Assembly (NCBI GenBank): GCA_012862575.1
Contig: BLSF01000009.1
Location: forward strand, 558,001-622,000
DNA length: 64,000 nt
From: Parietichytrium sp. I65-24A
Lineage: Eukaryota; Sar; Bigyra; Thraustochytrida; Thraustochytriidae
Reading direction: 5' to 3'
In this document: one piece after another, positions 34,266 to 48,832 of the stretch
Layout: each line of letters opens with the position of its first letter
How positions within the stretch are numbered: the first letter of the stretch is position 1
Notes under the pieces: generated by a model
Seen by the model: only the letters and a program-made list of their open reading frames with translations
The model's database searches: none
What the model was told of the DNA's origin: nothing
Program-made: the position numbers and the translations under genes

Positions 34266-35375
34266 CTATTTCAGGTATCCGTGAACGCGCTCCTTCTCCT
34301 TGCACGACGGATACTCCTTCATTTTGGCGCGAATTTTGTCCATTTTCTCCTTGTTACCGACCCGTCTAGCGGCGTCGAGCTGCGTGCGGCCGCGCATTTG
34401 GTCGGCGGCGCACTTCTGATCTACATGACTAATGTACATGCTTTGGACTTGCTTCTCTACTGCCCACAGCTTGTTAAAATCGCGGCCGTAGTTTCGGTAA
34501 AAGTCGCGGTCGACGAAGTATGGTATGTCAGGCACTACGTTTTGAACTGTTGTCATGCGCTTGATGGTGTGGCGGTAAGTAGACTGAAGTGCGAAGAGAG
34601 GTTCAGGCTTGGAGGTCGGTAGAGATGTGAGGCTCGCAATGAGAAGAAATAGAAGCGGCAAGAGTTGTAGGATACTCGACTGCCTCTCTGTGTTACTAGC
34701 TCGCTGGAATCCATGCTGGCCTGCCCCACCGCCACCACCAAATCTGTACATGCGTACATTGCCTCCTCCCATGGGAAATCCGAAGACTTCTCTAAAGATG
34801 TCTGCCGGGTCCACTTCGTCGTGATAGCGCCTTCTGAATTGCTGCGCCGGATTGTCAGAGGTTTCTCCGTACTGGTCGTATTCCGCGCGCTTGTTGCCAT
34901 CGCTCAAAATACCATACGCGCGGTTGATCTCTTTGAACGCCTCGTCTGCGCCAGGTGCACTGTTCTTGTCCGGATGAAACTTGAGAGCCATCTTCCGGTA
35001 GGCCTTCTTCAGAGTGGCGTCATCTGCATTTCTGGCCACACCAAGCATCTCGTAAAGGTCTTTGCAGGCTTTTATTCTACGCACCTCCTGAGCCTGCTGC
35101 GGGGTGAAAGGCCGCGAATCCTTAGGAGGATCTGTGGGCCGCGCCGTAGCTGGTTTTGCATTTGGCCTTTTTCTCACACCCGCGCCGGTATCGCTCGGGG
35201 GCGCAGGCGGCGGCTGATTCTGAGCCGCAGTAGCTCGCGCCAAAAGGGCTTTCGCCTGCTCTGAGGGATACAACTTGATGCTTTTCTCGATGAAGCGTAC
35301 AGCCTTCTCCATATTCCCATTCTTCAGCTCCCGGGCGCCGATCTCCAACGCACGCTCAGCCTCGCCTTTGTTCAT
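34266..35375 (-). CDS. DnaJ protein of the DNAJB12/B14 type (ER membrane)
   Basis: A 369-residue Hsp40 co-chaperone. The ATG at 35375 ([20 protein letters not shown]) matches the start of DNAJB12/14, which have this short TPR-like N-terminal helix pair. The upstream extension of the frame starts only at a TTG. The J domain covers ~105-170 with HPD at 134-136. A Gly/Phe-rich stretch follows ([14 protein letters not shown]). A single hydrophobic span lies at ~228-247 ([20 protein letters not shown]). The C-terminal region, including [10 protein letters not shown] and a charged end, fits the DUF1977 domain of this subfamily. Known relatives face the cytosol at the ER and feed membrane proteins to Hsp70 and ER-associated degradation. 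Confidence 0.92.
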
Positions 35376-35675
35376 GGTTGCTTTTGTGAGAATGGTTCGA
35401 AAACACACGCAGGTCGTTCTCAGCTCTCTGGCCAAGCCAAGCTACACACAAACAGCACCACCAAACTTCTCACAAATATATCACAAACAGCCCAACTGCG
35501 CACTCGCTTTTCACGTATGCCCCAAAACGCCGTTGTCACACACCACCCTTCAATTCTCGCGCTTCCCCTCTTTGTGTCCTCCAGCTCCGCAGTAAATGCG
35601 CACCAAAACCACCCCAAACGCGTCCGCAAGTACGATAACACCCACCTCGCGTATGTCTCCGTCTGTCCTCGACCT

Positions 35676-36922: not shown

Positions 36923-38272
36923 ATGGCGCCGTCTTTCTCATTTGGCGGGAGCACAAAGGCCAGAGGAAAAGCCGAGGAGGACGATGACGATGACGACGAC
37001 TTGGATAGACTCGAAAAAGGCCAGTCTCAGACCCTTCTTGAACGGGGAAAAGGCGAGAATGCTTCGACAGAGGACGCGAAGAGCAAGACTGCCCTGACCC
37101 AGCAAGGATTGCTGAAAGTCCGGGCCTCGCTGGAGAGCTTGATCGAATCTTGCACCGATTGCTCATCATGGAAAACCATCGAAAGTAGACTGTTCCTGTT
37201 TCGCTTCACACAGTAAGTTCAGCAGCCGTCCAAACAGCACGGGTTCCAATTCAATTTATCCGTGTGTCCCTGACAACTCGATCAGATACTTGGATGTTCT
37301 GCTGTCAATAGTCACGTTTCTCACAACCGTGTCGCTAGCTTCGAAATATAACATACAGGAGGTGCAGCTCCCGATTGTGGCAATTGCTTTAGCTTGTAAG
37401 TTATTGGAGCGCTTGTTCTCGAAATCCCCACCTTGACGATTGTGGCATCTGACCTCCGTTGCATTGCAGTGATCGCGCTTGCCGTCCCTTGGATTGGAAT
37501 ATTTGCGAGCTTCCACTTTTCAAGAAGGTCCATCCTCGCTGTCACCGTCTACGATATATGTTACAAAATCGGGTACACGCCGCTCCAGCTTGTGTACCTT
37601 TATCGGGCTGTAGACAGCAGCAAGCAGGACTCGTTCACCGCGGAAACGGTCGTGTCGTGTCTTCGGATCACTCTCGGCGTCTTCATCGCAATCACAGGTT
37701 CTGCGGCCTACCGCAAGTTGGCCAAAATGCAACGCGAGAAGAACCACGTCCTATTCATCGGCTTGGATGGTGCTGGCAAGAGTCTTTTAGTGGACAATAT
37801 TCTTCCGCATCAGGTCCGCCGCAAAGGCTCAACGGAATGGGTCGTGCATCCCACTGGCGGTATAGCGCTGCACGAGTTTATGCAATTTGAAGCCTTGTGG
37901 CGAATCTGGGACATATCCGGAAACGGCCGAGCTCGCTCAATGTGGCCGTACTATTATGGCTCCGTGGACACGATTGTCTTTGTGGTGGACGCATCAGACT
38001 TAAAACGGCTGGGCGTCGTAAAGAGAGAGTTCCACCAAATGATCAATCATCCTGAGGTTCGTCGTAGGTCCCCGGCCATCCTCCTGCTCTTAAATAAGAC
38101 CGACCTTCCGGAGCAGAACGGCAAGCGAATCAATCGCATTAATGCCACACATCTTCGTCAGCTTTTGGGCCTTGACGCACAGGTCTCGCGCTACCGTATC
38201 CAGCCCTGCAGCGGCCTTTCGGGCACCGGCATCCAGGAGGGATTGCAGTGGGCCAATTCTGCTCGAGCTTGA
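36923..38272 (+). CDS. membrane-anchored ARF-like small GTPase (three exons)
   Basis: Exons 36923-37212, 37286-37395 and 37470-38272 join in frame to 400 residues. The introns are 73 and 74 nt, both GTAAGT...AG. Residues ~1-95 are cytosol-like with an acidic run (EEDDDDDDDLD). Residues ~97-220 are hydrophobic, with several likely membrane spans, the second assembled across intron 2 (IVAIALALIALAVPWIGIF). An ARF-family GTPase domain follows: P-loop GLDGAGKS at ~231, a switch I Thr in HPTGG, switch II WDISGNG at ~280 where ARFs have WDxGGQ, NKTD at ~341, and a C-terminal CSGLSGTGIQEGLQWANSA typical of ARF/ARL. The catalytic Gln is replaced, so hydrolysis may be slow or altered. Classical ARFs use a myristoylated helix; here the membrane domain replaces it. 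SRP receptor beta has one span and a different G domain. The partner is unknown. Confidence 0.82.
37213..37285 (+). other. intron 1 of membrane ARF-like GTPase gene
   Basis: 73 nt, GTAAGT...CAG. Removing it joins TTCACACA to ATACTTGG and continues the frame as FTQYLDVLLSIV. Read through, the frame stops at once (TAA is absent, but the peptide loses its hydrophobic continuation). Confidence 0.8.
37396..37469 (+). other. intron 2 of membrane ARF-like GTPase gene
   Basis: 74 nt, GTAAGT...GCAG. Its removal joins two halves of a predicted transmembrane helix in frame. Confidence 0.8.
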
Positions 38273-44265: not shown

Positions 44266-45167
44266 ATGGCTGTGATGTGGCTGACTGGGGTTGGTTGTAG
44301 GTGCAGGCTCTCAAGCAGAAAACTCAGCGCAATGAGCAAACGGATCGCAGTTATTCCAGCAAGATGGGGCTCCTCCAGATTTCCCGGCAAGCCGTTGGCG
44401 AAGGTGAGTTGCTTGCACCATGCAGAAAATCGAGATTACTCGGTTCTTACTTGGGAAAGTGAGTGCTGCAGATCGCAGGTAAGAGTATGATTCGACGCAC
44501 CGTAGATCAAGTAAGCAAGGTGAGAGGATTGGACGACATTGTTGTCGCAACCGACGACCAGCGAATACTTTCAGAGGTGCATGGATCGGCTGCCCGGTGC
44601 GTTATGACGCCTCCAGAGTGTCCAACCGGAACGGACAGAGTCCTTGCGGCTTGCCGGGAGCTCGGGCTCGGCGCTGATGATCTAGTGATAAATGTGCAAG
44701 GCGATGAGCCATTCATCAACCCATGCCACATTGAGCTTTTGCTGCAGGACATGCAATTCACTAGGCAGACACTGATGGGTACAATTGCCGTGCACGAAAG
44801 TAGCTCTGCACGACTCGAGGACCCAAATGTTGTTAAGGTTGTCCTAGACTGCCACAAAGATGCGCTCTACTTTTCCAGGCATCCCATTCCATACGAGAGG
44901 GACACCTCCACATTTTCGTTCTTGAGACACGTAGGACTGTATGGATTTCGTTTTCATTTTCTACAACGGTTTGTAGAGCTGCCGCAGAGCAAACTGGAGC
45001 TCGCCGAAAGTTTGGAGCAGCTGCGTGCCTTGGAGGCAGGCTATAAAATCCGTGTTGTAACCGTCCAACCTCCCGTTTATTCTGGGATTGACACCGTCGA
45101 TCAACTCCATGAGGCCGAGCTGCTATTGCGGCATTTGGAGCTTAATTCGCATTCAAACAGGTCTTAG
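44266..45167 (+). CDS. kdsB: CMP-KDO synthetase (3-deoxy-manno-octulosonate cytidylyltransferase), two exons
   Basis: It activates the sugar acid KDO with CTP for cell-wall or glycan synthesis. Exon 1 is 44266-44403, the intron 44404-44471 (68 nt, GTGAGT...GCAG), exon 2 44472-45167; 277 residues in all. The join restores [21 protein letters not shown], the KdsB nucleotide-binding region after IPARWGSSR. Other diagnostic motifs are [53 protein letters not shown] and [10 protein letters not shown] second in-frame ATG at 44332 gives a 255-residue form close to bacterial length. I used the upstream one because its 22 residues are basic and Arg-rich, and plant enzymes carry a mitochondrial N-terminal extension. 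It is convergent with the GDP-mannose-type transporter. Confidence 0.93.
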
Positions 45168-45396: not shown

Positions 45397-46575
45397 CTAG
45401 ACCTTTGAATACATATGTGCAGAGCTCGGCCGACGAGTCCGTGGCTTGGAATGGTTAGGCTTGGAATGCAAGCTCTTGGTGTACGCATAGACAACACCGG
45501 CCAGAAGAGACAAGCCTATGAAGATCATAGTCTTGGTGGTAAGCACGGTGTGGAAGAGCAGGGCTCCGATTATGCTCACGGGGATCTTGTTCAAGCTGCC
45601 CACCATCGAGTATGTAGTTGGCGAGGTTTCTCGAACGCAAACGAACGAAGCCAGTGAAATCGAAAAGCCCACCGCCCCACTCATGAACACCACTACCAAG
45701 AAGTGCATATTGAGGAAATCCTGTGCTTTACTAGAGAACATCACCTGTTTAAAGTCCTGTAGAGTGAGAAAGTCCAACACGAACACCAAAGGAAGCGAGA
45801 GAAGACTGTTGTAGTAAACCTTTCCAAAATTGGACAGATTCGTAGTTTTCATAGCCCTAGGCATGTACAGCACGTACGCAGCTGAAACCACGCAGTTTGC
45901 ACAGGCCCATGCGATCCCCACCCTGTCCAGAGTAATGTCATTGACGGCAGCCAACCCAGCGGCAATGATCATGAGGGCGAGGCACGCCACAATTCCGCGG
46001 GACACTGTCTGCCCATAAAGCATGTAGTCCCCAAAAGCTACGATACCATTCGATGTGTTCTTGAAAATAGTGATCATCGGAACAGATAGATACCTCAGAC
46101 TGTAGAGGCCTGTCAGCAGCATGAGCACAAAGAAAAAGTTGAGAGGAAGCCAGTTCTTCGCCTTATCCAGAGTGATTGGCTCAAATTCAATGACCTTGAA
46201 AGAGCGGAGCACCAAAAGAAATACCACGCTAATGGACGACTGGAGGAATGTCAGCAAAAACTGAAAAGGATATTCCATCGAACTGATGATGTACTTGTTC
46301 AGCAGCACCATGCTGATGGAGGTGAGTGCATAAGACGCAATGGACACCACTGCTTTTGTAGAAACGTATGTTCTTCCAGCGCCGCATTGCGGTGTAATAC
46401 TCTCCCAAGTACCGAACAGCCCGAGCCCGGCCCGATGCGAGGCCATGTCATGTCGGTCCGAGACATCGCTGTGAACACTTTCCGATTCGTCGCTGCTGTC
46501 TGCTTCACCCACCAATTTGCGAGTCTCCGGAAAGTGCTTGTTCGCCATCAAAGAATGCGAATGCATGGAATGCAT
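45397..46575 (-). CDS. nucleotide-sugar transporter of the GDP-mannose (VRG4/GONST) type
   Basis: A 392-residue Golgi-type antiporter of the TPT/NST (drug/metabolite transporter) superfamily. The ATG at 46575 is the first in frame; a later one gives MANKHFPETRKL. After a ~60-residue acidic cytosolic head come about ten spans. GDP-mannose transporters carry FKNLTN and GALNK motifs. Here FKNTSNGIVAFGDY and GSLNKIPVSIIGALLF occupy the same places, so GDP-mannose or a related GDP-sugar is the likely substrate, exchanged for GMP. The SPTTYSMVGSLNK stretch is typical for the GONST/VRG4 group. The Ser in place of Ala in GALNK is a mild difference. A triose-phosphate-type substrate is less likely. 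Confidence 0.88.
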   Translation of the reverse strand: MHSMHSHSLMANKHFPETRKLVGEADSSDESESVHSDVSDRHDMASHRAGLGLFGTWESITPQCGAGRTYVSTKAVVSIASYALTSISMVLLNKYIISSMEYPFQFLLTFLQSSISVVFLLVLRSFKVIEFEPITLDKAKNWLPLNFFFVLMLLTGLYSLRYLSVPMITIFKNTSNGIVAFGDYMLYGQTVSRGIVACLALMIIAAGLAAVNDITLDRVGIAWACANCVVSAAYVLYMPRAMKTTNLSNFGKVYYNSLLSLPLVFVLDFLTLQDFKQVMFSSKAQDFLNMHFLVVVFMSGAVGFSISLASFVCVRETSPTTYSMVGSLNKIPVSIIGALLFHTVLTTKTMIFIGLSLLAGVVYAYTKSLHSKPNHSKPRTRRPSSAHMYSKV

Positions 46576-48832
46576 GATGCCCTTTCGCAAAAGAAGCTCC
46601 GCGCTGCTGCTGCTGCTGCTACTACCGCTTGAAGCACTATGCCCAACCGTCCACTACTCCAATTACGAAAACCTCAACTTCCAATGAAACCTCCACCAAA
46701 GCACGCGAGCAACTAATAACAGAACAAAACAAATGCGCGCTCGCTCCTCGGCGTAACTGGCTCGCCTAGCTGTCCCTCCTTCGGCGAAATTGAATTTACC
46801 GACCAACGCACCTCGTATGTATGTCCGCGCACCAGCACAAAAGGGGACTAAGAATGGCTCAGTGCAATCGCTCGTTTGTTCAGTATTAGTGTATTCGATA
46901 GGAGCCTCCAAATTGTGCACAACGTGTCGATGGAGTGGGGAGCTGCAGGACTATGAAGTGCTACGTACAACACTAGGAAACCCTGCGTGAAACTATGGCA
47001 CTCGGAGTGCGAGCTACATCCGGCACTGATGTGGTGGTGCGCTTGTTACTAATCGAGAATCTTGCAAAGGAGAGGGAACGCAGTTGGACTAATTGGACTA
47101 GTGAGAGGTATTACCAATCCGGGAGAAGGTTGAAGGAGGAGTTTCAATAGAAGTGAATAGCTAGAAAGTGCACCACTTCACACACTCGTCACACCCATTC
47201 ACGCCCAATCACCGACGTCACTCGGTGGTGCCGTTCGTATAGACCAGTTGTACCAGTTCTAACTCTCACTAAGTATTGTGATGTATTGCGTTGTATTGTG
47301 ATTAAAGTATTGTATAGCATTGATGTACTGTGTTGTGTATTGGGAGAGCGCAAAGTAAGAACAACGAATGGGTTCCGCAAGAAGCGACCTATTCTTTTAT
47401 GTAAGTGAAGCCACGAAGTGCAGCGTAAACAAACCCTATCGGAAGGTGGGGTGTCTCTCATGCCCTCGCAGGTGCCTTCTTATCTCATATACTAACTAAA
47501 ATCCGACCTCTTCTAGTCACCCCGAGTAGTATAAAACGCACCACACACTCGCCGTGATGTGCCAACATGGGTGGGATGGGAGATGATGGGAGGGGTGGAA
47601 AGGGGTGGGCACTTTCCCAACAAAGTTCTACAGTACTGTATATTTACTACCTAGAGATAAATAGTACCGTATCACTGCTGAATATATCCTCTTCCATTAG
47701 TTGAAGCGATAACTGCTCAGGATAAGTTCTGTGTGAGAGTAAGTACTTACTACCGGTAACGTCTTGAGCCTCGCACACTCAAAGAGTTGTGTACAGTACG
47801 TACTACACTACTAATATTTCATACCACCTCACTATGGGCAGAGGATACTATTAGTCAACATCACGTACTGCACTATCAGTAATGATGCTAATAACGAAAC
47901 TGGTAGTGATCATTGTTGGCTTGCTATGCGAGCTATGCAAGATTATGCAAGCGATTGGATCGCAGAGGTTTGTGATGGTTTGTGTGAGATTCTTGTTTCT
48001 AACAGTAAATTAATTAAGGTGGTGGGTGGGTGTGGGTGGATTGGGATTTGGAAAATGAAGTGATTCGATTCGTTCTGGACACGTGGGTTTCGTCAATCAG
48101 AATCCAAGAAGAATGGAAACATTGAAATACTTTGTATTAAAATCACGGAGGCAGCCCGGGGTTTCTCGCTGCTCGGGGAATGGGCGATAACACACCTCCG
48201 CAAGTCCGGCAGGAGTCGGAATCATGATGGACACTTTACAAGCTGCTAGTCCCATGTTTCCGTTGGGGATCACCGAGTTGAACTTCAACTTCGACTTTCA
48301 GACTTCAGGAACACTTCAACTTCGAGGTTAAACGAATTGCCCCAACTCCTTTAAGCTTTGAGCCTTCGACAACCAGCCGAGTTGGGAGATAGAACAAGCA
48401 GCCACTTTACCTTCTTTCCGAGTGCGCCGGCGGTGGGAATGTCAACTTACTTACAGCAGTGCATTGCAGTGACAAGTGAATTGCATTACATTGCATTGCA
48501 TTCGTTGATGATCGACTCGGTTAGGAATTGGTCTCGGCTGTAGCCTGACTCATTGTCGTGGAAGGCTTCCGAGATAGGAATGGGCTCGCTTGCGTGCGGA
48601 GACTCTCTGTGGATGGGCTGTGGACCTTGCATCACTCAGGACCAAAGAGATTTCATTTCATCCCTTCGCCAAGTGAAGTGAACGGCACTAGGTCCTGTCC
48701 TGCGATGTGAGCGCCGAATCCGAGCTTGGTCAGGGACAAAGTCTTCAGGAGTTGTTCTACGTTTGTAAACGTTGCATTGCAGGCGGCGCATCTCTCGCGC
48801 CTGCTCTGCAGCGTCGAGGTTGCCGCAGAGAG
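46576..48832. other. 2.3-kb spacer without supported gene
   Basis: Contains a (GCT)n run near 46600-46621, several GTAC/TACCGGTA words (47640-47815), GTGGGTGG words near 48020 and a GCATT repeat near 48480-48500. Open frames are under 120 codons and show no homology. The frame upstream of the next gene is open from a GTG at 48707 but lacks an ATG before 48833. Confidence 0.5.

What the first reader, a model, noticed from the sequence alone, without database searches (positions are those of the whole stretch)
36923..38272. ARF-like GTPase fused to an N-terminal multi-pass membrane domain
The spliced protein places an acidic head and several hydrophobic spans before a complete ARF-type G domain. 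ARF/ARL proteins normally use a myristoylated helix. The switch II Gln of WDxGGQ is replaced (WDISGNG). A permanently membrane-fixed, possibly slow-cycling ARF-like switch would be unusual.
Basis: partly seen in the sequence, partly recalled or inferred. Interest (0 to 1): 0.65.

Follow-up and report, generated by a model that had tools for sequence, protein, structure and literature searches.

The report
Membrane-anchored ARL6-like GTPase, heterotrophic protist
A protist gene encodes an ARF-type molecular switch, most like the ciliary GTPase ARL6, joined to a domain that crosses the membrane three or four times, whereas the best-known membrane-spanning ARF relatives have one crossing; it is an unusual but not unprecedented way to fix such a switch to a membrane.

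Summary
Exons 36923-37212, 37286-37395 and 37470-38272 join across GTAAGT...AG introns of 73 and 74 nt into a 400-aa frame with an Asp-rich head, a membrane domain (residues ~97-213; three clear spans plus one weak one) and a complete ARF G domain (225-400). The membrane part scores as coding as well as the G domain does. The closest solved relative is ARL6/BBS3, but the gene is a divergent paralogue: the genome also has a canonical ARL6, a canonical SRbeta and BBS5. Switch II Gln is Asn285; this alone does not imply a locked switch, since Chlamydomonas BBS3 has Ala there and still hydrolyses GTP slowly. Transmembrane-anchored ARF proteins are already known (SRbeta, Arl10, chlorarachniophyte and pavlovophyte paralogues), so the new element is the multi-pass anchor, which matched nothing in Pfam, PDB, the own genome, GTDB or viral contigs. 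No eukaryotic protein database could be searched, so its spread is unknown. No light-harvesting gene was found, so the host is probably not an alga. Best reading: a permanently membrane-fixed, ARL6-derived switch that recruits a cytosolic effector, as SRbeta does. New variant of a known kind; moderate interest.

The parts
36923..37212 (+). Exon 1: start codon, Asp-rich soluble head (residues 1-96), part of codon 97
   Evidence: First ATG in the frame; codon score 0.15, reached by 1.4% of non-coding runs; model
37213..37285 (+). Intron 1, 73 nt, GTAAGT...CAG, CTGAC 13 nt before the 3' splice site
   Evidence: retention would stop translation at once (TAA)
37286..37395 (+). Exon 2: transmembrane span 1 (residues 98-116) and first part of span 2
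37396..37469 (+). Intron 2, 74 nt, GTAAGT...CAG, CTGAC 18 nt before the 3' splice site
   Evidence: retention would truncate the protein
37470..38272 (+). Exon 3: rest of span 2, weak span 3, span 4, complete ARF G domain and stop
   Evidence: AlphaFold2 model of this exon
37287..37343 (+). Span 1, residues 98-116 YLDVLLSIVTFLTTVSLAS
   Evidence: Hydropathy
37374..37504 (+). Span 2, residues 127-145 (split by intron 2), strongest span, followed by HFSRR
37523..37603 (+). Weak span 3, about residues 152-178, kinked helix at GYTP
   Evidence: Unfavourable insertion score 7; helices at pLDDT ~65 in the model; needed if both basic flanks are cytosolic (inference)
37640..37708 (+). Span 4, about residues 191-213, predicted helix running on to residue 222 next to beta-1 of the G domain
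   Evidence: helix 191-222
37742..38269 (+). ARF-type G domain, residues 225-400: GLDGAGKS, PT, WDISGN, NKTD, CSG
   Evidence: Pfam Arf 108 bits; PDB ARL6 1.7e-25; model pLDDT mostly above 90, Z 25 to human ARL6
37922..37924 (+). Codon AAC = Asn285 at the switch II Gln position
   Evidence: Alignment

Best explanation
It is a divergent ARF-family paralogue, probably derived from ARL6/BBS3, whose N-terminal amphipathic helix has been replaced by a multi-pass membrane domain (likely four spans, both ends cytosolic). The last span is predicted to run as one helix up to the first strand of the G domain, so the G domain sits at the cytosolic face permanently. Membrane residence would not depend on nucleotide; GTP binding would instead set whether the switches accept a cytosolic effector, as in SRbeta. 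Shown by sequence: gene model, domain order, intact nucleotide-binding motifs, Gln-to-Asn change. Inferred: topology, ARL6 descent, GTP binding, effector recruitment, slow intrinsic hydrolysis. Unknown: which membrane, and the effector.
For: Gene model and coding signal. ARF domain. All G motifs kept. Best sequence match ARL6 (1.7e-25 against 1e-21 for ARF1), best Foldseek match Chlamydomonas ARL6, and shared ARL6-type traits: Asp-[Ile/Met]-Ser-Gly at switch II instead of Gly-Gly, and a two-residue longer loop after the NHPxx stretch, as in human and own ARL6. No Gly2. Basic residues follow spans 2 and 4 (HFSRR; RKLAKMQREK), which fits four spans under the positive-inside rule (inference). The genome's own SRbeta and ARL6 are separate genes, so this is an additional member.
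Against: The ARL6 link is weak in trees (49/11 and 52/69 support), the branch is very long, and grouping with ARF1 is not rejected (p-AU 0.12-0.17). Known ARL6 proteins group together without it (91/95). Span 3 is weak, so a three-span form with the head on the other side cannot be excluded. No expression, localisation or biochemistry. No relative of the membrane domain was found, so there is no conservation evidence.
Confidence: 0.66

Rival explanations
1. The gene model is wrong: translation starts at Met220 in exon 3 (or upstream exons belong to another transcript), giving a soluble ARF-like protein without its N-terminal helix.
For: Met220 is the only Met in exon 3 before the G domain. No RNA-seq.
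Against: The frame is open from 37400 through the G domain. The membrane part codes as well as the G domain. Both introns have consensus donors and branch motifs and keep frame. A Met220 start would leave 7 residues before beta-1, too short for an ARF helix.
Confidence: 0.1
2. The membrane domain is not just an anchor but a channel, transporter or membrane-shaping module regulated in cis by the ARF switch.
For: Multi-pass, about 120 residues, with a weak span holding Asp and Lys; more than an anchor needs. Predicted helix from span 4 into the G domain.
Against: No match to any transporter, channel or reticulon-type domain; no similarity to ARL6IP1 or RTN4 by a shuffle test on sequences recalled from memory. 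Small for a transporter.
Confidence: 0.15
3. A decaying or non-functional paralogue: Gln loss, long branch and divergent switch I (PTGG) reflect relaxed constraint.
For: Very long branch (3.2-3.7 changes per column); Asn285; a seven-residue insert after NKTDLP.
Against: Intact frame across three exons, intact P-loop, PT, DxxG and NKxD, coding bias present.
Confidence: 0.09

Closest known systems
ARL6/BBS3
   Same: Best sequence match and best Foldseek match; DxSG switch II; loop length; some members also lack the switch II Gln (Chlamydomonas Ala73)
   Different: About 27-35% identity; ARL6 has no membrane-spanning domain; a canonical ARL6 is encoded elsewhere in this genome; falls outside the group of known ARL6 proteins in the trees made here
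SRbeta (SRP receptor beta subunit)
   Same: ARF-family G domain behind an N-terminal transmembrane anchor, no lipid, no classical Gln (the last from general knowledge)
   Different: One span; belongs to another family (Pfam SRPRB); a separate canonical SRbeta lies on contig C49
Arl10 of animals
   Same: N-terminal transmembrane anchor, switch II Gln missing
   Different: Single span, 76-residue extension, mitochondrial and peroxisomal targeting, animal-specific (PMC11166204, PMC8358228)
TM-anchored Arf1 paralogues of chlorarachniophytes and pavlovophytes
   Same: Independent gain of an N-terminal transmembrane region in protist ARF proteins (PMC8358228)

Membership tests
ARF family (PF00025) | Pfam Arf model above its cut-off over the whole G domain | tested here: met
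   108 bits against cut-off 22.3, model positions 7-170 of 174
ARF family (PF00025) | Nucleotide-binding motifs GxxxxGK[ST], T of switch I, DxxG, NKxD | tested here: met
   GLDGAGKS, PT, DISG, NKTD
ARF family (PF00025) | Switch II Gln (usual but not obligatory) | tested here: not met
   Asn285; several accepted members lack it (PMC12722892, PMC11166204), so it is not defining
ARF family (PF00025) | N-terminal amphipathic helix, often with Gly2 (usual but not obligatory) | tested here: not met
   Starts MAPSF; replaced by a membrane domain; SRbeta and Arl10 also depart (PMC8358228)
ARL6/BBS3 | Best match to ARL6 among solved ARF proteins | tested here: met
   VIA-align Z values are tied with other ARFs
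ARL6/BBS3 | Falls inside the ARL6 clade | tested here: inconclusive
   Next to ARL6 in the best trees but support 49/11 and 52/69
ARL6/BBS3 | Is the single ARL6 orthologue of the genome | tested here: not met
   Canonical ARL6 on C41, 2.9e-51 to bovine ARL6
ARL6/BBS3 | Binds the BBSome (BBS1) when GTP-bound | not testable with these tools
   BBS5 is present in the genome; no binding data
SRbeta | Match to the SRPRB model | tested here: not met
   This locus is absent from the SRPRB hits; the true SRbeta is on C49 with one N-terminal span

The most novel reading that the evidence does not exclude
A new lineage-specific class of ARF-family protein in which an ARL6-derived switch is built into a polytopic membrane protein and gates it or reports on it in cis, so that the GTPase no longer cycles on and off the membrane.
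Probability: 0.15. Interest if true: 0.62.

Novelty: new variant of a known kind. Interest (0 to 1): 0.4.

Why it matters
In ARF proteins GTP binding is coupled to membrane binding by release of the N-terminal helix. A protein in which the helix is replaced by a fixed multi-pass domain separates these two steps and would show how the interswitch toggle works without it. If the ARL6 descent is right, it is also a case of a ciliary trafficking switch turned into a resident membrane protein, next to a retained normal ARL6.

Tried and rejected
SRbeta orthologue: rejected, a separate SRbeta exists. Sole ARL6 of the genome: rejected. Photosynthetic alga: no light-harvesting match. Thraustochytrid PUFA synthase as a lineage marker: no match over the TIGR02813 cut-off, so no lineage is claimed; the 18S search found only 3' fragments, and the Rfam 18S search failed twice. 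Membrane domain homologues: none in the own genome to E 5, PDB to E 10, Pfam above cut-off (DUF7139 at E 0.026 is below its cut-off and treated as chance), viral contigs or GTDB. ARL6IP1 or reticulon fusion: no signal (reference sequences from memory). Single-sequence AlphaFold2: pLDDT 37, discarded. The structure search covered the G domain only; the membrane part was barely tested. The residue-shuffle control was flawed and is not used.

Full report
Observation. The stretch 36923-38272 holds a three-exon gene. The donor sites are GTAAGT, the acceptors CAG, the introns 73 and 74 nt, and the joined frame is 400 codons. Both introns carry CTGAC 13 and 18 nt before the 3' splice site. In the same genome, seven of eight introns of ARF paralogues have GTAAGT, the eighth GTGAGT, and most hold a CTRAY motif, although they are longer, 89-156 nt. 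A codon score trained on long open frames of the window gives 0.15 for exon 1, 0.083 for the membrane part and 0.085 for the G domain, against a mean of -0.07 for stop-free non-coding runs. The membrane part is thus as well supported as coding sequence as the G domain. What is missing is transcript evidence.

Anatomy. Residues 1-96 are soluble, with a run of Asp near the start and no Gly2. Residues 98-116, 127-145 and 194-213 are clear hydrophobic spans. A fourth, about 152-178, is weak and kinked. Basic residues follow spans 2 and 4; by the positive-inside rule both lie in the cytosol, which needs a span between them, so four spans with both ends cytosolic is the more likely topology (inference). 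Residues 225-400 are a complete ARF G domain. AlphaFold2 with an alignment of paralogues from the same genome gives pLDDT mostly above 90 for the G domain, and a helix from residue 191 to 222 that ends just before the first strand. The best matches are human ARL6 at Z 25.0 (rmsd 2.0, 165 aligned), tied with other ARF proteins, and Chlamydomonas ARL6 in Foldseek. The paralogue rows bias the model towards an ARF fold, but sequence already establishes that fold.

Family. The best solved relatives by sequence are bovine and human ARL6 (1.7e-25, 5.4e-25) and Chlamydomonas ARL6 (6e-24), then ARF1 (1e-21). The candidate shares with ARL6 the DxSG form of switch II and, with human, bovine and own ARL6, a longer loop after NHPxx. 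In trees it stands beside ARL6 with weak support on a very long branch, and an ARF1 link is not rejected. The genome has a canonical ARL6 on C41, BBS5, a single-span SRbeta on C49, and ARF1, ARL1, ARL2, ARL3, ARL5, ARFRP1, SAR1 and ARL13 (named by their sequence motifs). So this is an extra, divergent ARF-family member with a probable but unproven ARL6 origin.

Switch II. The Gln position holds Asn285. Loss of this Gln is frequent in the family: ARL10, ARL13, ARL15 and ARL16 lack it (PMC12722892; PMC11166204). Chlamydomonas BBS3 has Ala73 and is an active GTPase with low intrinsic activity (PMC7963478). The change is compatible with slow hydrolysis but does not show it.

Mechanism. In ordinary ARFs the N-terminal helix leaves the G domain on GTP binding and inserts in the membrane (PMC8358228). 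Here a transmembrane helix takes its place, so membrane residence cannot depend on nucleotide. The most likely working is like that of SRbeta: a fixed membrane receptor whose GTP state controls effector binding at the cytosolic face. This is inference from anatomy.

Novelty. A survey of more than 2,000 ARF genes reports N-terminal transmembrane regions in SRbeta, Arl10 and several protist paralogues, with chlorarachniophytes and pavlovophytes named (PMC8358228). The principle is therefore known. The parts of that survey read here do not describe a multi-pass domain; its supplementary table could not be read. No homologue of the membrane domain was found in the places that could be searched, none of which is a general eukaryotic protein collection. 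The host has no light-harvesting match and keeps BBS5 and ARL6, which suggests a heterotrophic protist with a flagellate stage; the lineage was not determined.

Verdict. A real, joined, unusual gene: a new variant of the transmembrane-anchored ARF type, moderately interesting.

Noticed in passing
window 44463-45164 (+) and 45400-46653 (-): A bacterial-type CMP-Kdo synthetase (kdsB, NCBIfam TIGR00466 166.7 bits) lies beside a triose-phosphate or nucleotide-sugar transporter-like gene; Kdo activation in an apparently non-photosynthetic protist is worth a look.
   Followed up: partly
L054 (C16:664509) and L055 (C61:264882): Two fragments of the 3' end of 18S rRNA lie outside a full rRNA gene, one after a Copia-like pol sequence and at a contig end, the other cut off in mid-sequence.
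   Followed up: no
L017 (C7:422308-422820): Another divergent ARF paralogue near ARL3 with DLGGS, so also without the switch II Gln.
   Followed up: partly
G000 C66:8562-22499: A 5,583-codon open frame with four ketosynthase-type matches, a giant type I synthase without introns.
   Followed up: no
window 34269-35441 (-): Upstream neighbour is a DnaJ protein with DUF1977, of the ER-membrane DNAJB12/14 type, divergently placed.
   Followed up: no
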